DNA of 43,560 nucleotides from Gammaproteobacteria bacterium (GTDB taxonomy: Bacteria > Pseudomonadota > Gammaproteobacteria > UBA6429 > Thiohalophilaceae). The stretch spans positions 1 through 43,560 of the forward strand of contig JAUVEN010000011.1 in the NCBI GenBank assembly GCA_030594815.1, given 5' to 3'. Each line of letters begins with the position of its first letter. Position 1 is the first letter of the stretch. The notes under the pieces are model-generated. The model saw nothing but the letters and a program-made list of their open reading frames with translations, was not told the DNA's origin and ran no database searches. The position numbers were made by a program, and so were the translations under genes. Shown here one piece after another: positions 30,684 to 38,579 of the stretch.

Positions 30684-33410
30684 ATGTCAAAAAAATCAAA
30701 CAAACCCTTCGTTCTGGTCGATGGTTCATCGTATTTATTCCGCGCCTATCATGCCATGCCCGATATGAGTAATTCTAAACGTGAGCCAACAGGAACAATT
30801 TACGGCGTCATTAATATGATGCGCCGTTTATTAAAAGATTATGACCCTGAGCATCTTGCAGTTGTTTTTGATGCGAAAGGAAAAACATTTCGTAACGATA
30901 TGTACAAAGAATATAAAGCGAATCGTCCACCGATGCCAGATGATTTGCGTCAGCAAATAGAACCTATACACGAAATCATTAAAGCAATGGGTTTACCGTT
31001 GATTTGTGTTTCGGGTGTTGAAGCTGATGATGTTATTGGCACCTTGTCGGAACAGGCGGCGGCATTAGGAATTGATACGATCATATCAACGGGCGATAAA
31101 GACATGGCGCAGTTGGTGAATAAACATGTCAGCCTGGTTAATACCATGACCGACGTTCATATGGATATCGAAGGAGTAAAAGAAAAGTTTGGTGTTCCAC
31201 CTGAACGTATTATTGATTATCTCGCACTTATTGGCGACACCGTTGATAACGTGCCTGGAGTGCCAAAGGTTGGACCAAAAACAGCGGTTAAATGGTTAGG
31301 GCTTTATGATTCGCTTGATGGCGTCATGCAAAATGCTGAAGAAATAAAAGGTAAGGTAGGTGAAAACTTACGTAATTTCATGAGTGAACTACCACTCTCC
31401 CGTGATCTGGTAACCATTAAATGTGATGTTGAATTAGAAGAGAATCCGGAAACTTTACAACGGCAAAAACCAGACAATGGAAAATTAAGTGAGCTGTTCG
31501 GTCATTTCGAATTTAAAACATGGCTGGCCGAAGCAAATGCAGGTGGTAGTACTAGCAGTAACAACTCAACAACAAATAAAGCGTCTACTGTAGCCAAAGA
31601 AATAACCGCAAAATATGAAACTGTTTTTACCGAGAAAGAATTAGATACGTGGTTAAAGAAACTAAAAAAGGCGGATTGTTTTAGTTTTGATTTGGAAACA
31701 ACCAGTCTTGATTATATGCAAGCTGAAATTGTTGGTTTATCTTTTTCTGTTAAAGAAGGTGAAGCCGCGTATGTACCTGTAGGGCATGACTATTTAGATG
31801 CTCCAAAGCAACTTGATCGTGCAATGGTTTTAGAAAAGTTCAAACCATTATTAGAAGATGAAAAAGTATGTAAGTTAGGACAGAATTTAAAATATGATAT
31901 GAATGTACTAGGTAACTATGACATTCAACTGCAAGGTATACAGCACGATACCATGTTGGCTTCTTATGTGTTGGATAGCACGTTGCGCCATGGTATGGAT
32001 GACTTAGCAGTTCGACACTTAAGTTATAGCACCATTCATTATGAAGATGTTGCGGGTAAAGGTGCCAAGCAAATTACCTTTAATCATGTTGAAGTAGAAA
32101 CGGCAGCGCCTTATGCAGCAGAAGATGCAGACATTACGTTACGTTTGCATAATGTTTTATGGCCACAGTTAGAAGAAATAAAATCACTACAACATATCTA
32201 TCAGGAAATGGAATTACCTTTATTGCCAGTACTCTCTCGTATGGAACGTAATGGTGTTTTGCTTGATGTCATTATGCTGGCTAAACAAAGCAAACAAATT
32301 ACTCAGCGTTTAAAAGAACTTGAGTTAGGCATTTATGAAATTGCGGGTGAAGAATTTAATATTGGTTCACCAAAACAGTTACAGGTAATTTTATTTGAAA
32401 AATTAGAATTACCCATAATTTCAAAAACACCAAAAGGGCAACCATCAACCGCAGAGTCTGTATTGCAAGAGCTGGCACATGATTATCCTTTGCCCAAGTT
32501 AATTTTAGAATATCGTAGTTTAAGTAAGCTGAAATCAACCTATACCGATAAATTACCACAACAGGTTGAGCCGACTACCGGTCGGGTACATACCTCCTAT
32601 CATCAGGCTGTTGCGGCAACAGGTCGATTATCTTCTTCTGATCCAAATTTACAAAATATCCCGGTTCGAACAGAAGAGGGTCGACGTATTCGACAGGCTT
32701 TTGTGGCAGCGCCGGGCTATAAAATGGTGGCGGCGGATTACTCGCAAATCGAATTACGAATTATGGCGCATTTATCGGGTGATAAAGGGTTACTTGATGC
32801 ATTCTCCAAAGGGTTGGACGTGCACAGTGCAACAGCAGCTGAAGTCTTTGGTGTTAGTACCGATGAGGTAACAAAAGATCAACGTCGTTCGGCTAAGGCA
32901 ATCAATTTTGGTTTAATTTATGGTATGTCTGCTTTTGGTTTAGCCAAGCAACTGGATATCACTCGGCCAGAAGCGCAGGAATATGTTGACCTTTATTTTA
33001 AACGTTATCCCGGCGTTAAAGAGTATATGGAACAAACAAAAGAAAAAGCCAGGGAAGATGGTTATGTCGAAACGGTTTTTGGTCGACGTTTATATCTACA
33101 TGAGATTAATGCCAAAAATGGTATGCGCAGGCAGTATGCAGAACGCACCGCGATAAATGCACCTATGCAAGGTACAGCTGCAGATATTATTAAACGTGCA
33201 ATGATAAGCTTGGATAAAGACATTCAAACGGGTAAATTTGATATGCGTATGATCATGCAAGTGCATGATGAATTAATATTTGAAATAAAAGAATCGCAAG
33301 TTGACGATGCAATAAAATTGATAACAAATAAAATGGAACAAGCTGCCGAGTTATCCGTACCCTTGGTTGTTGATGTAGGTATTGGTAATAATTGGGATGA
33401 GGCACATTAA
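30684..33410 (+). CDS. polA: DNA polymerase I
   Basis: Replication and repair polymerase, 908 residues. Residues 1 to about 285 are the 5' nuclease (VDGSSYLFRAYHAM, FDAKGKTFRNDMYKEYKANR, VEADDVIGTL, STGDKDMAQLV, GDTVDNVPGVPKVGPKTA). A Ser/Thr/Asn-rich linker precedes the 3'-5' exonuclease domain, where SFDLETTSLDYM keeps the D and E metal ligands near 336-338 and YAAEDADITLRL is motif III. Polymerase motifs are VAADYSQIELRIMAH (A), RRSAKAINFGLIYGMSAFG (B) and IMQVHDELIFEI (C). All three activities look intact. The ribosome site is weak (AGGTCTTCTTAAG upstream). A small membrane protein gene follows after 16 bases. Confidence 0.98.
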   Translation: MSKKSNKPFVLVDGSSYLFRAYHAMPDMSNSKREPTGTIYGVINMMRRLLKDYDPEHLAVVFDAKGKTFRNDMYKEYKANRPPMPDDLRQQIEPIHEIIKAMGLPLICVSGVEADDVIGTLSEQAAALGIDTIISTGDKDMAQLVNKHVSLVNTMTDVHMDIEGVKEKFGVPPERIIDYLALIGDTVDNVPGVPKVGPKTAVKWLGLYDSLDGVMQNAEEIKGKVGENLRNFMSELPLSRDLVTIKCDVELEENPETLQRQKPDNGKLSELFGHFEFKTWLAEANAGGSTSSNNSTTNKASTVAKEITAKYETVFTEKELDTWLKKLKKADCFSFDLETTSLDYMQAEIVGLSFSVKEGEAAYVPVGHDYLDAPKQLDRAMVLEKFKPLLEDEKVCKLGQNLKYDMNVLGNYDIQLQGIQHDTMLASYVLDSTLRHGMDDLAVRHLSYSTIHYEDVAGKGAKQITFNHVEVETAAPYAAEDADITLRLHNVLWPQLEEIKSLQHIYQEMELPLLPVLSRMERNGVLLDVIMLAKQSKQITQRLKELELGIYEIAGEEFNIGSPKQLQVILFEKLELPIISKTPKGQPSTAESVLQELAHDYPLPKLILEYRSLSKLKSTYTDKLPQQVEPTTGRVHTSYHQAVAATGRLSSSDPNLQNIPVRTEEGRRIRQAFVAAPGYKMVAADYSQIELRIMAHLSGDKGLLDAFSKGLDVHSATAAEVFGVSTDEVTKDQRRSAKAINFGLIYGMSAFGLAKQLDITRPEAQEYVDLYFKRYPGVKEYMEQTKEKAREDGYVETVFGRRLYLHEINAKNGMRRQYAERTAINAPMQGTAADIIKRAMISLDKDIQTGKFDMRMIMQVHDELIFEIKESQVDDAIKLITNKMEQAAELSVPLVVDVGIGNNWDEAH

Positions 33411-33426: not shown

Positions 33427-33732
33427 TTGTTAGATGCAGTAGTAATCTTCTTATGGGTATTCTTTGCTTATACTATTTATTTTAATATATTGGCTTTAAT
33501 TGTTATTTATTACGATAAAAGTTTGACCCAGTATCAAAAAATTGCTCAGACATTAATTATTTGGCTTGTTCCGGTTGTTGGGGCAGCCTATGTTTTACAT
33601 TTATTATTTAAAGTTTCACCTAAAACAATACCCCGTTCATGGATTTTATGGCCATTTAAAAATCTTGTTTATGGGCCGCCAATAAAAAGATATGATGATG
33701 CACCCCCACGACGCACAGGTGGTCGTCATTAA
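33427..33732 (+). CDS. Small membrane protein of unknown function
   Basis: Not recognised. The 101 residues contain two hydrophobic segments (about 5-27 and 41-61: LIIWLVPVVGAAYVLHLLF) and a basic, proline-containing tail ending DDAPPRRTGGRH. The start is TTG at 33427, eight bases after a strong AGAGGG; no ATG or GTG fits. It is 16 bases after polA and probably co-transcribed with it. The layout resembles small two-helix proteins of the PLDc_N type (a signal-anchor pair with a WxVP motif), but no PLDc_N call is made. Confidence 0.7.
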   Translation: MLDAVVIFLWVFFAYTIYFNILALIVIYYDKSLTQYQKIAQTLIIWLVPVVGAAYVLHLLFKVSPKTIPRSWILWPFKNLVYGPPIKRYDDAPPRRTGGRH

Positions 33733-33784
33733 ACTGTATTACTTAAAAAAATTATAAAAACGTAAAAGGAAAAAAGGGGTAGTT

Positions 33785-34939
33785 ATGGAAAGCACAAACA
33801 CAGAAAACGGAACTAATATAATTAACAAACCATTTGAATTTACCGGTAAATCGGGTGAGTTTTTTGCTATATGGATAGTCAATGTCGCGTTAACAATTCT
33901 AACGCTGGGTATTTATTCTGCCTGGGCTAAAGTGAGAACAAACCAGTATTTTTATGGTAATACATTGCTTGATAGCACGTCATTTCGCTATACCGCAAAT
34001 CCAAAACAAATTCTTAAAGGACGAATCATTGCTTTTATTCTTTTTGTTATTTATTTTGCAGTCTCAAATGTGAGTCCAATTCTTGGTGCCGGCGCATTTT
34101 TTGTTCTGATGTTGTTAGTACCGGCCTTTTTGGTCTTGTCGATGGCGTTTAGATTAAAAAATTCTGTTTACCGAAATGTACGCTTTAATTTTGATAAGAA
34201 TTTTTCAGGTGTGTATAAAATATTTGCCATTCCTGTTGTTGTTATGAGTGCTTATATTTTTGTGATTAGTCAGTTTCAGGAATCGGTAGAAAACAGCGCA
34301 GGCGCTGAACCAACATTCCCGATATTTGTTTTTGTTTTATTAGGGCTAATCATGTTAATGGCACCCTGGTGGGAATACATGATTACAAATTTTAAAGTAA
34401 AACATGCTAAATATGGTGATGCAGGTTTTTCTTTTTCAGCAAGTACTAAAAATTATTATTGGCTTTATCTAAAAATGGTTTTAATTTTAATTGCTTTCTC
34501 TGCTCTTCTTGGGTTTGGTGCCGCATTTATAATTCCATTATTTAAATCTGAATCAGCAGAGCCTTCTGCAATAATGCAATATATGCCTATTTTGATGTTT
34601 GTTGTTATCGTGCCTTTTTATTTATGGATATTTGCTTATATGGCCACTAAACGTACTAATTTGTTGTACAACAATATTGATATTGCCGGGCATAAAACCA
34701 AGTCAGAACTTAAAACCGGTTATATGATGTATTTGTATTTAACCAATACACTGGGCATGTTATTAACTCTTGGCTTACTCATGCCATGGGCTAAAATCCG
34801 AACAGCAAGATACCGTGCTTCGGTTACCTCGGTAGATGTAGCGGGAGATTTAAGTCAGTTCACAGCCGTACAAGCGGATCATCAGTCAGCTCTTGGTGAA
34901 GAGATGGGTGAAATGTTTGATCTGGATCTGGGCTTCTAA
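33785..34939 (+). CDS. DUF898 family (YjgN-like) membrane protein
   Basis: Integral membrane protein of unknown function, 384 residues with about six to eight transmembrane helices. The signature appears in both halves: FTGKSGEFFAIWIVNVALTI followed by YSAWAKVRTNQYFYGNTLLD near the start, and LTLGLLMPWAKIRTARY near residue 330, as expected for DUF898/YjgN proteins. The soluble acidic tail ends EEMGEMFDLDLGF. A GGAAAAAAGGGG ribosome site is just upstream. It is followed 15 bases later by an M48 protease; the pair recurs in other proteobacteria, so a joint membrane or protease role is plausible but not shown. Confidence 0.9.
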   Translation: MESTNTENGTNIINKPFEFTGKSGEFFAIWIVNVALTILTLGIYSAWAKVRTNQYFYGNTLLDSTSFRYTANPKQILKGRIIAFILFVIYFAVSNVSPILGAGAFFVLMLLVPAFLVLSMAFRLKNSVYRNVRFNFDKNFSGVYKIFAIPVVVMSAYIFVISQFQESVENSAGAEPTFPIFVFVLLGLIMLMAPWWEYMITNFKVKHAKYGDAGFSFSASTKNYYWLYLKMVLILIAFSALLGFGAAFIIPLFKSESAEPSAIMQYMPILMFVVIVPFYLWIFAYMATKRTNLLYNNIDIAGHKTKSELKTGYMMYLYLTNTLGMLLTLGLLMPWAKIRTARYRASVTSVDVAGDLSQFTAVQADHQSALGEEMGEMFDLDLGF

Positions 34940-34954
34940 GGCTGGTTTTGAAAA

Positions 34955-36073
34955 ATGATTAAAGGCAGTTACTTTAACGGCGAGACATCTGCTAAAAAAG
35001 ATGTCTCGCTTTATTATAAAGAAGATGGTCTGGTTGGCTTTAACGAGCTTGATATTGATGAAATTAGTTTTAATGACATCAATATTTCTTCTCGCATAGG
35101 CAACACGCCACGTTATTTAAATTTCCCGGATGGCGCACAATTTGAAACACTCGATAATGCGTCCATTGATGAAATGGTCGAAAAGTTAGCGAATGATCCA
35201 CTTCATGGTTTAGCGCATAAGCTTGAAAGTGCCAAATCCTTTGTTCTTTTTACAGTAGCAACGGTCATTATCTTTGGCTGGCTGTTTATTCAATATGGTA
35301 TTCCCGCTTTTAGTAAACAAATTGCAGAACTTTTACCTGATGAAGCATCGCAATACATGGGACAAGGTGTGCTGGATGCAATGGATAAAGGATTCTTTTC
35401 TGAAAGCAAATTAACTGAAAAAAGACAAAAGGAATTAACTGCACTATTTAATGGCTTATTAAAAAATATAGAAGGCAGTAAAAACTACCAGTTGAAATTT
35501 AGATTAGGCGGGAAAATTAGAGCAAATGCTTTTGCTCTACCTGATGGCACCATTGTTTTTACCGATGAGCTGATTAACCTTGCTGAGCATGATTCAGAAA
35601 TAGTATCCATTATGTTGCATGAAATTGGTCACCTGAAAAGACACCACAGTCTTCGGGCAACTATTCAGCAATTTAGTCTGGCCATGTTTGTAATGGTGAT
35701 CACCGGTGATGTATCAACAAGCAGTTCTATTATTACTGCAATCCCGGTCATGCTGGTTGAATCGGGTTTTTCACAGGACATGGAAACAGAGGCGGATAGC
35801 TATTCATTAGAGTACATGCTTAAACATAAGATCAATCCTAATAACTTTGCGACTATGATGGAGAAATTGGAAGCGAGTTATATGCCAGAATACACTGTTT
35901 GTATGGAAGCCATAAATGGTAGTGTTAATCAGAAGGTTAAGGCAATTAAGTGTATAAACGATGCTGTAAAATTGAGTAAAGATGAAAATAATGAGGATGA
36001 TAAAAGTACAATGGACTATTTTTCAACTCATCCTTCTTCAAAAGAACGCATGGATAGATTTAGGCTAAAATAG
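34955..36073 (+). CDS. M48 family zinc metalloprotease, membrane-anchored
   Basis: Putative membrane-associated zinc peptidase, 372 residues. The N-terminal part (1 to about 95) is a soluble small beta domain (SYFNGETSAKKDVSLYYKED). A transmembrane segment is at about 100-118 (FVLFTVATVIIFGWLFIQYG). The zinc motif HEIGH is at 222-226 in LHEIGHLKRHHSL, and the third ligand is likely the E or D in METEADSYSLEYM. STHPSSKERMDRFR near the C-terminus is typical of M48 proteases of the Ste24/YcaL/BepA group. It follows the DUF898 gene by 15 bases and is probably in the same operon. Substrate unknown; envelope quality control is likely from family knowledge. Confidence 0.92.
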   Translation: MIKGSYFNGETSAKKDVSLYYKEDGLVGFNELDIDEISFNDINISSRIGNTPRYLNFPDGAQFETLDNASIDEMVEKLANDPLHGLAHKLESAKSFVLFTVATVIIFGWLFIQYGIPAFSKQIAELLPDEASQYMGQGVLDAMDKGFFSESKLTEKRQKELTALFNGLLKNIEGSKNYQLKFRLGGKIRANAFALPDGTIVFTDELINLAEHDSEIVSIMLHEIGHLKRHHSLRATIQQFSLAMFVMVITGDVSTSSSIITAIPVMLVESGFSQDMETEADSYSLEYMLKHKINPNNFATMMEKLEASYMPEYTVCMEAINGSVNQKVKAIKCINDAVKLSKDENNEDDKSTMDYFSTHPSSKERMDRFRLK

Positions 36074-36261
36074 GCATATATGGGTGTTTCCTGTTAAAAG
36101 AGCCGTGTTCCGTGGAAGTGCTATTTTTTATATTTGGTAAATGTTTTATCTAATAGCAAAAAAATAGAAAAAGCGTGTAAAAAGTAATAAGCTAGTCAAC
36201 AGAGTATGTTTGAAAAACAGCTTTACAATAAACTAAACAGCATCATTTTGGGATAATTAAT

Positions 36262-36846
36262 ATGCAATTTAAAAATATATTATTACTGCTCAGCACAGCA
36301 TTATTCGTTATTGCTTGTTCAAGCGCAAAAAAACAGGATGTTGATGATAGCGCTTCAGCAAGAACCGATTTAATGCAAAAAGGTTTTTTATTGTCGTTGC
36401 CTGAAGATGAGGGCTGGTCAGTTGTTAAAGTGGGTGACTATAAAGTGCTGTTAAGCAAGCAGGCTGAGAATGGTGTGGATAGATACACAATTCAGACACT
36501 GGTTGTTAATTTGCCAACATTTGAAGATGATAATCAGTTTTTAGAATTTATTGAAAATCGTATGACGTCGAGTATGCAAAACGCTAAAGTTTTTGAACAA
36601 AATGCAGTATTTTTTACCGGTGACAATCAAATTTGTGTGCAGTACAACAGTAAGGAAAAACGTAAATCTAAAAGTGCTGAAGTATTAACCCTGGAAGTGG
36701 TGAGTTTTACCTGTCGTCATCCAGATAATGCAAATGCAGGTGTATATATAGCGTTATCCAAGAGTTATGCACCAGGAACGTCAGAAGAAGATTTAACTGC
36801 AACAGCGACTGAAATATTTAATCGTTTATATTTTACTGAGTTATAA
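36262..36846 (+). CDS. Lipoprotein of unknown function
   Basis: Secreted lipoprotein of 194 residues. The signal peptide MQFKNILLLLSTALFVIAC gives a lipobox ending in Cys 19, followed by SSAKKQD; no Asp at +2, so outer-membrane sorting is favoured by the usual rule. The mature part (LPEDEGWSVVKVGDYKVLLSK, then alternating strands, and ATATEIFNRLYF at the end) resembles small surface or secreted stress-type lipoproteins, but no family is recognised. It lies 188 bases after the protease gene, in an AT-rich gap that probably contains its own promoter. Confidence 0.8.
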   Translation: MQFKNILLLLSTALFVIACSSAKKQDVDDSASARTDLMQKGFLLSLPEDEGWSVVKVGDYKVLLSKQAENGVDRYTIQTLVVNLPTFEDDNQFLEFIENRMTSSMQNAKVFEQNAVFFTGDNQICVQYNSKEKRKSKSAEVLTLEVVSFTCRHPDNANAGVYIALSKSYAPGTSEEDLTATATEIFNRLYFTEL

Positions 36847-36854
36847 GCTTATCC

Positions 36855-36895
36855 ATTTGTCGGGTCTTTATTAAAGGCCTGACAAATCTTTATTT
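36855..36895 (+). terminator. Terminator-like hairpin after the lipoprotein gene
   Basis: ATTTGTC (36855-36861) pairs with GACAAAT (36881-36887), extended inward by GG/CC and CTTTA/TAAAG, followed by a broken T tract CTTTATTT. It starts 9 bases after the stop codon. Confidence 0.65.
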
Positions 36896-37005
36896 ACATC
36901 TAATAAAGATCCTTTTCATCGCCACATTTTTTAATTCATTTATTAGTCAGAAATAGTCTGATTTTCTCATCTTTTTTTGAAACTTTTTGAACGATATAAC
37001 GTCAT

Positions 37006-37131
37006 ATGTGTGGTGCACATGCACTCTTCTCACACTCTTCCCCGTATGTGAGGATGTTCGTCCGATTCTTCCCTTATTGGACGATATGATTGCCCCGGAC
37101 GTTTAACCCCAATCGTTCCGGGGTTTTTTTT
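37006..37131 (+). ncRNA. Candidate small RNA 1 with C-rich loops and own terminator
   Basis: No open frame explains this segment, which reads as a chain of hairpins. First, ATGTG/CACAT (37006-37020). Second, CTCACA/TGTGAG (37029-37034 with 37047-37052), with loop CTCTTCCCCGTA. Third, a 9-pair stem TCGTCCGAT/ATTGGACGA (37058-37066 with 37076-37084), with loop TCTTCCCTT. Last, a terminator CCCCGGA/TCCGGGG (37093-37099 with 37117-37123), with ACCCC in its loop and eight T. A plausible -10 box TATAAC is at 36995-37000, but no good -35 is seen. Repeated CUUCCC loops look suited to pair with ribosome sites, as in sibling sRNA families of other bacteria (inference). The 5' end is estimated. Confidence 0.6.
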
Positions 37132-37229
37132 GTTTACAAAGTTTCACAAAGGCCGGCTTTAAAGTCAGAGGTGTCTTGCCTATAGTTATATTACTTGATA
37201 TTGCTTTTAATCCCTTAGCGATATGGAGC

Positions 37230-37332
37230 GTTTGGTCCCCAATACCAGACAAACTACTTTGCCCCGGAATATGAAGAAAAAGTATTCTTCTACTCTTCCC
37301 TATCCCAACCCCTAATTCCGGGGTTTTTTTTT
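37230..37332 (+). ncRNA. Candidate small RNA 2, sibling of small RNA 1
   Basis: A stem GTTTGGT/ACCAGAC (37230-37236 with 37244-37250) displays the loop CCCCAAT. A perfect 9-pair terminator stem CCCCGGAAT/ATTCCGGGG (37262-37270 with 37315-37323) follows, ending in nine T. Its large loop holds a nested hairpin GAAGAA/TTCTTC (37273-37278 with 37285-37290) and the pyrimidine stretch CTCTTCCCTATCCCAACCCC. It shares TTGCCCCGGA, CTCTTCCC and TTCCGGGGTTTTTTTT with candidate RNA 1, about 200 bases upstream. The 5' end is unknown and may be near 37193, after a TATAGT box at 37181. The two could be separate transcripts or partly one. Confidence 0.55.
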
Positions 37333-37336
37333 GCCC

Positions 37337-37461
37337 CTGAAATGTCCTGTGAGCTTAAATTTCGGCGTTATAAATTCACGAAAATCGGTCATTTACTTGA
37401 GTAAGCTCCCTCTTTTCGTACAAATTTATGCCTTGAACTTTAAGCTCACAGGACATTTCAG
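37337..37461. repeat. Palindromic repeat C with perfect 23-base arms
   Basis: The arms at 37337-37359 and 37439-37461 are perfect inverted copies (left arm begins CTGAAATGTCCTGTGAGC). The inside keeps GGCGTTAT (37364) and ATGCCTTG (37428) around a TCATTTACTTGAGTAAGCTCC core, the same plan as repeat A (GGCGTTAT ... TCATGTACTCATCGTACACTCC ... ATGCCTTG), so A, B and C look like one superfamily with different arms. It lies 5 bases after the candidate RNA 2 terminator. Confidence 0.85.
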
Positions 37462-37529
37462 AAAATTGAGTTTAAAAGGTGATTTTGAGAGTTAATATTC
37501 ACTTAAAATAATCACTTGCAGGCAGGGGC

Positions 37530-37579
37530 AAGCTCCTATTTTTCGTACAAATTTGTGCCTTGATCTTTAAGCGCACAGG
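37530..37579. repeat. Partial copy of repeat C (right half)
   Basis: AAGCTCCTATTTTTCGTACA and following bases to GCGCACAGG repeat the right half of repeat C (about 37404-37454) in direct orientation with several changes. It has no matching left half nearby, so it is a decayed or truncated copy. Confidence 0.7.
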
Positions 37580-37698
37580 CTTTCTCAGCTGATAATTTTC
37601 AAATAAATTGCGGTACTTAATGAACGTGCTTCGCGTTTCGTCAGTATTACCCTAACCTGCTCCTGCGTTGTTCTACCTTCGCCCGTCCATGGGCTCGT

Positions 37699-37776
37699 CC
37701 CTCTTTTCGTACAACAAATGCTTTGAACTTCAAGCTCACAGGACGTTTCAGAAAATTATGTTTAAAAGGTGGTTTT
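37699..37776. repeat. Partial copy of repeat C (right half plus flank)
   Basis: From TCCCTCTTTTCGTACA through CAAGCTCACAGGACGTTTCA and GTTTAAAAGGTGG this repeats 37408-37480, including about 20 bases beyond the right arm of repeat C. The shared flank shows that the duplicated unit was longer than the palindrome. A reduced left-half copy follows at about 37819-37845 (GCTTAAATTTTGGTGTTGTA). Confidence 0.75.
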
Positions 37777-37777
37777 A

Positions 37778-37812
37778 TCCCCTCCCCTTCAAGGGGAGGG
37801 TTAGGGAGGGGT
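37778..37812. repeat. GC-rich palindrome H inserted between repeat C pieces
   Basis: CCCTCCCCTT (37780-37789) and AAGGGGAGGG (37791-37800) are perfect inverses, followed by TTAGGGAGGGG, which offers an alternative pairing. This CCCTCCCCTTC..AAGGGGAGGGTTAGGGAGGGG type is a common intergenic repeat in many bacteria (general knowledge). It separates a right-half from a left-half piece of repeat C. Confidence 0.8.
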
Positions 37813-37891
37813 GATTAATGCTTAAATTTTGGTGTTGTAAATTCAGACCCTCAGGATGCTTCAGGTTTTTGTGGTAAATCTTGTATAGAAG

Positions 37892-37958: not shown

Positions 37959-38579
37959 TTACTTGGCTGGAAAATCTAACCAATTATCGAGTACGGCTTG
38001 AGCTTCTTCCAGACCGGTGCCTTTTAAGGAGGAGAAGAGCTGAATGCTGACGTTTGCAAGCTCGGCGAGGTCACGTTTAACCGAGAGCAGGACATTTTGT
38101 GCGGCGCCGCGCTTGAGTTTGTCGGCTTTGGTGAGCAGGATATGCACTGGCATATTGGAATGTAGGCACCATTCGAGCATTTTCTGATCAAAGTCGGTGA
38201 GTGGGTGTCTAACGTCCATTAATAGGATAAGTCCTTGTAATGATTGACGTTCTTGGAGATATTTTTCCAAGGACAGGGCCCATTCTTGCTTTACTCGGTC
38301 GGGTACTTTGGCGAAGCCATAACCGGGTAAATCAACAAGACGGCGTTCATCATCCAGACGGAAAAAGACCAAATGTTGGGTGCGACCGGGGGTTTTACTG
38401 ATGCGTGCGAGTGATTTCTGGCAAGTGATACGATTCAGTGCACTGGATTTACCCGCATTAGAGCGCCCGGCAAAGGCGACTTCACGACCAATATCATCGG
38501 GTGCTTGTTCGGGTTTTGGTACGCTTTTGTCAAATTGGGCGATATTGTAGCGTGCTGGATTGTTGCGTGTTTTAGTCAA
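37959..38579 (-). CDS. engB: Ribosome biogenesis GTP-binding protein YsxC/EngB
   Basis: Essential GTPase that helps assemble the 50S ribosomal subunit. The 206 residues hold G1 [15 protein letters not shown] (near 31-45), a conserved [11 protein letters not shown] (G2), G3 [11 protein letters not shown], and G4 [18 protein letters not shown] serves as G5. It begins with [19 protein letters not shown], as in YihA. It is divergent from the cytochrome c genes with 198 bases between; the engB/cytochrome c4 link is conserved in Pseudomonas-like genomes. Confidence 0.97.

What the first reader, a model, noticed from the sequence alone, without database searches (positions are those of the whole stretch)
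36995..37332. Tandem pair of sibling small RNAs with repeated CUUCCC loops and matching terminators
Two adjacent non-coding segments share three motifs in the same order (TTGCCCCGGA, a CTCTTCCC-type stretch, TTCCGGGGTTTTTTTT), although in RNA 1 the CTTCCC loops come before the terminator stem and in RNA 2 the stretch is inside it. RNA 1 has a 9-pair stem with loop TCTTCCCTT (37067-37075), a 6-pair stem with loop CTCTTCCCCGTA and a terminator loop with ACCCC; RNA 2 has loop CCCCAAT and a long pyrimidine loop. Seen in sequence: the stems and T runs. Established: sibling sRNAs with C-rich, anti-ribosome-site loops exist in Neisseria and Alphaproteobacteria. Inference: these two regulate translation, perhaps with Hfq. 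I know no named family with this layout.
Basis: partly seen in the sequence, partly recalled or inferred. Interest (0 to 1): 0.75.

Follow-up and report, generated by a model that had tools for sequence, protein, structure and literature searches.

The report
Paired envelope-stress small RNAs beside engB
Two neighbouring genes for small regulatory RNAs, copies of one another, sit between polA and engB; they belong to a widespread, largely unrecognised family related to ErsA of Pseudomonas and anti-hemB of Burkholderia, and their promoters suggest that two different cell-envelope stress signals switch them on.

Summary
Two non-coding genes lie on the + strand between polA and engB: RNA 1 (about 37012-37131) and RNA 2 (about 37193-37332). 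Each has hairpins with C-rich loops and a CCCCGG...CCGGGG terminator. A covariance model built from RNA 1 of relatives finds a match in all 22 well-assembled genomes of the same family and in 71 of 184 genomes across the class. In 100 of those genomes, 45 of 59 matches lie in the short flank beyond engB, 44 convergent with engB. On 82 copies 94% of stem cells pair, 23 of 24 pairs show two-sided changes, and loops stay CUCCCU / CCCCAA. The model also hits RNA 2, so the two are paralogues. Upstream of RNA 1 is AAACTT-N15-GTCATA, a sigma-E-type promoter: 48 of 82 copies match it at 10 or more of 12 positions (0.6 expected). RNA 2 has instead a TTTACA-N4-TTCACA-like repeat, seen before every second copy examined. 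Rfam ErsA and anti-hemB models pick the same sites, mostly below cut-off. Best explanation: a tandem pair of ErsA-like RNAs whose C-rich loops mask ribosome-binding sites, RNA 1 under sigma-E, RNA 2 under an OmpR/CpxR-type regulator. Transcripts and targets are untested.

The parts
36980..37006 (+). sigma-E/AlgU-type promoter of RNA 1: AAACTT (36980-36985), 15-nt spacer, GTCATA (37001-37006)
   Evidence: same motif (>=10 of 12) before 48 of 82 homologues vs 0.56 expected; the rpoE gene of this genome has GAACTC-N15-GTCTAT upstream
37012..37131 (+). RNA 1, about 120 nt, ErsA/anti-hemB-like sRNA
   Evidence: covariance model R1 73.8 bits and R2 56.7 bits at 37012-37123; conserved in the genome's family
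37012..37025 (+). RNA 1 5' hairpin (GUGC/GCAC)
   Evidence: fold; helix 1 of A4, 4 of 4 pairs with two-sided changes
37027..37054 (+). RNA 1 hairpin 1, loop CUCUUCCCCGUA (37035-37046)
   Evidence: helix 2 of A4, 8 of 8 pairs with two-sided changes
37058..37084 (+). RNA 1 hairpin 2, loop UCUUCCCUU (37067-37075)
   Evidence: helix 3 of A4, 99% of cells paired
37092..37131 (+). RNA 1 intrinsic terminator with ACCCC in its loop and an 8-T tail
   Evidence: helix 4 of A4, 98% of cells paired
37133..37148 (+). Direct-repeat box TTTACAAAGTTTCACA (reverse complement contains GTGAA-N5-GTAAA, like a CpxR/OmpR-family site), just after the RNA 1 T run
   Evidence: present before all 23 second copies examined, >=9 of 10 informative positions vs 0.09 expected; only site with <=1 mismatch to the pattern in the genome
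37181..37186 (+). -10-like TATAGT of RNA 2, 32 nt after the box; TTTAAA 17 nt upstream as a weak -35
   Evidence: spacing to the box kept in relatives
37193..37332 (+). RNA 2, about 140 nt, paralogue of RNA 1
   Evidence: R1 29.0 bits (E 8e-5), R2 44.5 bits (E 2e-7; R2's training set includes it); 77-82% DNA identity in four genomes of the genus; 8 of 25 pairs with two-sided changes
37194..37228 (+). RNA 2 hairpin 1, loop UUUUAAUCCCU (37206-37216)
37230..37250 (+). RNA 2 hairpin 2, loop CCCCAAU (37237-37243)
37261..37332 (+). RNA 2 terminator with a long pyrimidine-rich loop (ACUCUUCCCUAUCCCAACCCC); a shorter alternative AACCCC/GGGGUU hairpin is possible
30684..33410 (+). polA, outer landmark of the locus (four other genes follow before the sRNAs)
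   Evidence: aligned to polA of relatives
37959..38579 (-). engB/yihA, convergent with the sRNAs
   Evidence: Pfam MMR_HSR1

Best explanation
RNA 1 and RNA 2 are tandem, paralogous, trans-acting sRNAs of an ErsA/anti-hemB-like family tied to the polA-engB locus. RNA 1 is the ancestral copy, read from a sigma-E (RpoE/AlgU) promoter during envelope stress. RNA 2 is a duplicate whose promoter has a sigma-70-type -10 driven from an upstream TTNACA-N4-TTNACA box by an OmpR-family response regulator, possibly CpxR-like. Both act by presenting C-rich loops (CUUCCC, UCCCC, CUUCCCUAUCCCAACCCC) that pair with G-rich ribosome-binding sites and block translation of envelope or metabolic mRNAs, possibly with Hfq. 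Shown by sequence comparison: existence as conserved structured units, paralogy, the two promoter architectures, constancy of the loops. Inferred: transcription, which factors bind, which copy is ancestral, the mRNA targets, repression as the outcome, Hfq use.
For: Folding z-scores -5.1 and -4.8. R1 matches in 36 of 40 genomes of the family, 22 of 22 well-assembled ones, and 71 of 184 across the class; in 100 of those genomes 45 of 59 hits fall in the 2.4-kb flank past engB, 243 kb in total, and 44 of 45 are convergent with engB, median 39 nt away. 82 copies: 94.4% of cells paired vs 74.6% shuffled, 23 of 24 pairs with two-sided changes, covariation 0.568 vs 0.198. Loops constant while stems change: CUCCCU in 64 of 82, CCCC in 73 of 82, CCC in the terminator loop in 71 of 82. 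Sigma-E promoter before RNA 1 types; rpoE present with the same kind of promoter before it. Box before all second copies examined. ErsA and anti-hemB models land on the same engB-side sites; a bona fide ErsA next to polA has GAACTT-N16-GTCATAG, and ErsA is known to depend on sigma-22 and to block translation at an RBS (PMC5819304, PMC6321483).
Against: No transcript data. Window RNA 1 has AAACTT, one mismatch in the -35. Neither RNA reaches the Rfam gathering score of any family. R1 and R2 score a true ErsA only weakly (8.9 and 17.3 bits). The box's regulator is unknown and its likeness to CpxR sites is by eye; 17 of the 23 second copies were located with the box as a landmark.
Confidence: 0.72

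Rival explanations
1. They are only terminators or 3' UTR structure: the first terminates the lipoprotein transcript and the second is a spare terminator facing engB; no independent sRNA.
For: Both end in strong terminators, convergent with engB; the lipoprotein gene ends 165 nt upstream.
Against: The lipoprotein gene has its own terminator-like hairpin at 36855-36887; other loci have polA, not this lipoprotein, next to the sRNA; four covarying helices, constant loops and a dedicated promoter motif are not needed for a terminator.
Confidence: 0.08
2. The C-rich loops are mainly a protein ligand or sponge (for example for Hfq or another RNA-binding protein) rather than base-pairing seeds.
For: A similar loop motif repeated in three hairpins also occurs in protein-titrating RNAs; Hfq is present.
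Against: CsrA sponges need GGA in loops, and these loops are poor in G (about 10% G, GGG in at most 2 of 82); sX13, with a similar layout, needs its C-rich loops and matching G-rich mRNA motifs and does not need Hfq (PMC3771888).
Confidence: 0.15
3. The likeness to ErsA and anti-hemB is convergence on a simple design (C-rich hairpins plus terminator) at the same locus, not common descent.
For: Short sequences, generic CCCCGG terminators; ErsA scores are weak in both directions; Spot 42 shares the locus without detectable sequence likeness.
Against: Three models built from different taxa agree on the same positions and strand beside engB in many genomes; shared promoter architecture and the polA-sRNA-engB order.
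Confidence: 0.2
4. RNA 2 answers to some other regulator (for example a PhoP-, ColR- or KdpE-like factor) or is constitutive, the box being an UP-element or remnant; the rest of the explanation stands.
For: Many OmpR-family sites look like 10-11-bp direct repeats; the regulator is not identified.
Against: Fixed spacing to the -10 and near-perfect conservation argue against a remnant; the reverse complement resembles the published CpxR consensus (PMC5063474).
Confidence: 0.45

Closest known systems
ErsA (Pseudomon-1, RF01719), Pseudomonas
   Same: Between polA and engB; sigma-22/sigma-E promoter GAACTT-N15/16-GTCATAG; C-rich loop in the terminator; in 100 surveyed genomes 11 of 13 RF01719 hits (all sub-threshold) fall beside engB, on R1-type sites.
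   Different: Window RNA 1 scores 14.5 of the required 50 bits; ErsA is described as a single gene and its first two hairpins differ from the CUCCCU/CCCCAA pattern.
anti-hemB / Burkholderia RNA 7 (RF02837; ncS04 in B. cenocepacia, PMC5688073)
   Same: Hairpin with UCCCU-type loop plus CCCCGG terminator; matches both window RNAs over the whole model (23.9 and 22.9 bits); passes its cut-off at R1 sites beside engB, with polA on the other side in L043.
   Different: Window copies are far below 49.5 bits; the Rfam model covers 81 positions only; in the papers read no promoter type, tandem copy or function is described.
sX13, Xanthomonas
   Same: Downstream of polA, 115 nt, three stems with apical 4C/5C loops that repress mRNAs with G-rich motifs near translation starts (PMC3771888).
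   Different: Single copy; Hfq-independent; sequence likeness and promoter type not tested here.
Spot 42 (RF00021), enterobacteria and vibrios
   Same: Same polA-engB interval and orientation.
   Different: No match to R1 or R2; known to be repressed by cAMP-CRP and to need Hfq.
NmsR sibling sRNAs, Neisseria
   Same: Tandem homologous sRNAs with CU-rich unpaired stretches complementary to ribosome-binding sites (as described in PMC5688073).
   Different: Homology, locus and promoter not tested here.

Membership tests
ErsA (RF01719) | Score over the Rfam gathering threshold (50 bits) | tested here: not met
   14.5 bits on RNA 1; no gathering hit
ErsA (RF01719) | Gene in the polA-engB interval, convergent with engB | tested here: met
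   four extra genes lie between polA and RNA 1 in the window
ErsA (RF01719) | Sigma-22/sigma-E promoter | tested here: met
   AAACTT-N15-GTCATA for RNA 1, by sequence only; not for RNA 2
ErsA (RF01719) | Base-pairs with mRNAs at or near the RBS | not testable with these tools
   no expression or target assay
anti-hemB (RF02837) | Score over the Rfam gathering threshold (49.5 bits) | tested here: not met
   23.9 and 22.9 bits; genome-wide E 0.003 at RNA 1
anti-hemB (RF02837) | UCCCU-loop hairpin followed by a CCCCGG terminator | tested here: met
   full-length model alignments for both RNAs, 1-81 of 81
engB-side sRNA family defined here (models R1/R2) | Full-length match with covariation-supported helices and C-rich loops | tested here: met
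   RNA 1 73.8 bits (in the training set), RNA 2 29.0 bits (not in the training set) with R1
Spot 42 (RF00021) | Sequence/structure match to RF00021 | tested here: not met
   no hit in the window; R1 and R2 miss E. coli spf
sX13 | Three stems with 4C/5C apical loops downstream of polA | tested here: inconclusive
   layout and locus alike, but the window's loops are a mix of UUCCCC, CUUCCCU and CCCCAAU, and the sX13 sequence was not compared
sX13 | Hfq-independent repression through C-rich loops | not testable with these tools
   needs experiment

The most novel reading that the evidence does not exclude
One ancient sigma-E-driven sRNA with C-rich loops aimed at ribosome-binding sites is inherited at the polA-engB locus across much of the class; ErsA and anti-hemB are two separately named twigs of it. 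In this lineage and others it has been multiplied in tandem (two to four copies), and in this family the extra copies were handed to a second, probably envelope-stress, regulator, so one loop code reads two signals.
Probability: 0.5. Interest if true: 0.75.

Novelty: new variant of a known kind. Interest (0 to 1): 0.62.

Why it matters
It would turn two narrowly named sRNAs (ErsA, anti-hemB) into one widely inherited sigma-E sRNA, giving many unstudied bacteria a predictable envelope-stress riboregulator at a fixed address. The tandem copies with different promoters offer a clean case of how a duplicated sRNA is re-wired to a new signal while its targeting loops are kept. It also makes the old question of why the polA-engB interval so often holds an sRNA (Spot 42, ErsA, sX13) directly testable by comparison.

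Tried and rejected
Rfam at gathering threshold: nothing in the window. The plant microRNA hits MIR7807/MIR8562/MIR2630 at 37326-37467 are chance matches to a long inverted repeat. snoRNA, suhB/mmgR and NsiR1 matches: sub-threshold, no support. Spot 42 membership: rejected. Short ORF inside the sRNAs, as SpfP in Spot 42: a 10-codon ORF in RNA 1 is seen by eye, but related copies such as L019 lack an ATG there. CsrA-type sponge: loops are poor in G. MAFFT default alignments misplace the terminator, so covariation was counted on the model-guided alignment A4, which leans towards its structure; slid and shuffled controls are far lower. Phylum-wide search with R2 was insensitive (9 candidates scored per genome, and every genome listed was of the same class) and says nothing about Alphaproteobacteria. 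The genome-contig scan found five close relatives only. Genome-wide sigma-E pattern counts were no higher than the reversed-pattern control (7 vs 17), so the motif alone is not evidence; its fixed place before the sRNA is.

Full report
What is there. The finding lies in a 1.1-kb gap between a lipoprotein-like gene (36262-36846, +) and engB/yihA (37959-38579, -), with polA (30684-33410, +) further upstream. Both segments fold much better than shuffled sequence (z -5.1 and -4.8). RNA 1 runs from about 37012 to 37131 and RNA 2 from about 37193 to 37332. Both have the order hairpin, hairpin, terminator, each with a C-rich loop; RNA 1 has one more small 5' hairpin.

Conservation. A DNA search of this genome and 57 relatives showed RNA 2 at 77-82% identity in four genomes of the genus, and short matches in other genera, many of which proved to lie beside engB. 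Extracting the interval from these genomes shows both RNAs, side by side, in many genera. Alignments gave two-sided compensatory changes in 7 of 19 pairs for RNA 1 and 8 of 25 for RNA 2.

A class-wide family. A covariance model (R1) from 16 RNA 1 sequences finds full-length matches in 36 of 40 genomes of the family, 22 of 22 well-assembled ones, and in 71 of 184 genomes across the class. For 100 of these genomes I took the 2.4-kb flank beyond the 3' end of engB (the first 80 were fetched and read). Of 59 hits in those genomes 45 fall in that flank (243 kb in all, against genomes of about 3 Mb each), 44 on the strand opposite to engB, median 39 nt from its end. In 13 of 20 loci inspected polA lies on the other side. 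On 82 copies, 94.4% of helix cells are standard pairs (shuffled 74.6%), 23 of 24 pairs show changes on both sides, and the covariation score is 0.568 against 0.198, with slid structures at 0.09 or less. The alignment was guided by the model, which favours it, and the sequences are related, so the shuffles are not a probability; the size of the effect is the point. While stems change, loops do not: CUCCCU in hairpin 1 of 64 of 82, CCCC in hairpin 2 of 73, CCC in the terminator loop of 71. Copies are often tandem: two in G009, G012 and G015, three in G032, four in G190.

RNA 1 and RNA 2 are paralogues. R1, built without RNA 2, matches RNA 2 end to end (29.0 bits, E 8e-5) and the RNA 2 of another genus better (45.6 bits in G008, L039 119-237). 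R2, trained on both kinds, gives 44.5 bits.

Promoters. Before RNA 1 there is AAACTT-N15-GTCATA (36980-37006). Across the 82 copies 48 have at least 10 of 12 matches to GAACTT-N15/16-GTCATA in the preceding stretch of about 75 nt (0.56 expected from shuffles), 34 have at least 11 (0.02 expected), mostly 5-10 nt before the RNA. This genome has an RpoE (321.7 bits, cut-off 236), whose own upstream region holds GAACTC-N15-GTCTAT, as expected of a self-regulated sigma-E gene (inference). A true ErsA locus (G182, 121 bits to RF01719) has GAACTT-N16-GTCATAG just downstream of polA, and ErsA is sigma-22 dependent (PMC5819304, citing Ferrara 2015). The second copies of the genome's family lack this motif and carry TTNACA-N4-TTNACA about 30-33 nt before a CTA-type -10: 23 of 23 at 9 or 10 of 10 positions, 0.09 expected (17 were located using the box itself, so the figure is partly circular, but six were not). 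In the window the box (37133-37148) directly follows the RNA 1 T run. On the other strand it contains GTGAA-N5-GTAAA, close to the CpxR consensus GTAAA-N4-8-GTAAA (PMC5063474). That an OmpR-family regulator binds it is inference.

Relation to named families. Nothing in the window reaches an Rfam cut-off. Below it, anti-hemB (RF02837) matches both RNAs over its whole length and ErsA (RF01719) matches RNA 1. Run over the 184 genomes, RF01719 hits fall in the engB flank in 11 of 13 cases in the 100 genomes examined, and RF02837 in 41 of 56 of the stronger hits; at L043, L103 and L108 anti-hemB passes its cut-off exactly on R1 hits beside engB. So three models from different taxa point to one family. 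R1 and R2 see ErsA itself only weakly (8.9 and 17.3 bits, right place and strand), so common descent with ErsA is likely but not proven. Spot 42 shares the locus only. sX13 shares locus and layout and is the best functional guide: C-rich loops repress mRNAs with G-rich motifs near the start codon (PMC3771888); its sequence was not tested here. I found no paper in the held library that mentions both ErsA and sX13.

How it most likely works. Envelope stress frees sigma-E, RNA 1 is made, and its C-rich loops pair with G-rich ribosome-binding sites to stop translation, as ErsA does on algC (PMC6321483) and oprD (PMC7264166). RNA 2 repeats the loop code from a promoter that a response regulator probably controls, so a second signal can impose the same or an overlapping programme. 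Hfq is present (104 bits) and the RNAs end in 8-9 U; for ErsA both Hfq-dependent (PMC7264166) and Hfq-independent (PMC5819304) effects are reported. Transcription, factors and targets are not shown here.

Verdict. New variant of a known kind.

Noticed in passing
window 37337-37461, 37530-37588, 37693-37776: Short repeated elements, one with 27-nt inverted arms (CTGAAATGTCCTGTGAGC...GCTCACAGGACATTTCAG), fill the space between RNA 2 and engB; similar sequence sits at the same place in L011 and, in part, L012. They look like MITE- or REP-like insertions and explain the false plant microRNA hits.
   Followed up: partly
window 33427-36846: Four genes (small membrane protein, DUF898, M48 peptidase with DUF7092, lipoprotein-like) separate polA from the sRNAs here, whereas polA adjoins the sRNA in many relatives.
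   Followed up: partly
L157 558-1300 (minus strand): Four tandem copies of the sRNA in one genome (G190), each with a sigma-E-like element upstream (8-9 of 12 matches); L163 has three copies.
   Followed up: partly
L162 770-1137: A second locus on another contig than engB in G057 with two tandem copies of the sRNA, each with GAACTT and a sigma-E-like -10; G188 has a similar pair (C35).
   Followed up: no
window 37261-37324: RNA 2 can form two exclusive terminator hairpins (CCCCGGAAU/AUUCCGGGG with a long loop, or AACCCC/GGGGUU), which would expose or hide the last C-rich stretch; RNA 1 has the same AACCCC/GGGGUU option.
   Followed up: no
window 37778-37817: A C/G-rich palindrome-like repeat (CCCCTCCCCTTCAAGGGGAGGG) between the sRNAs and engB.
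   Followed up: no
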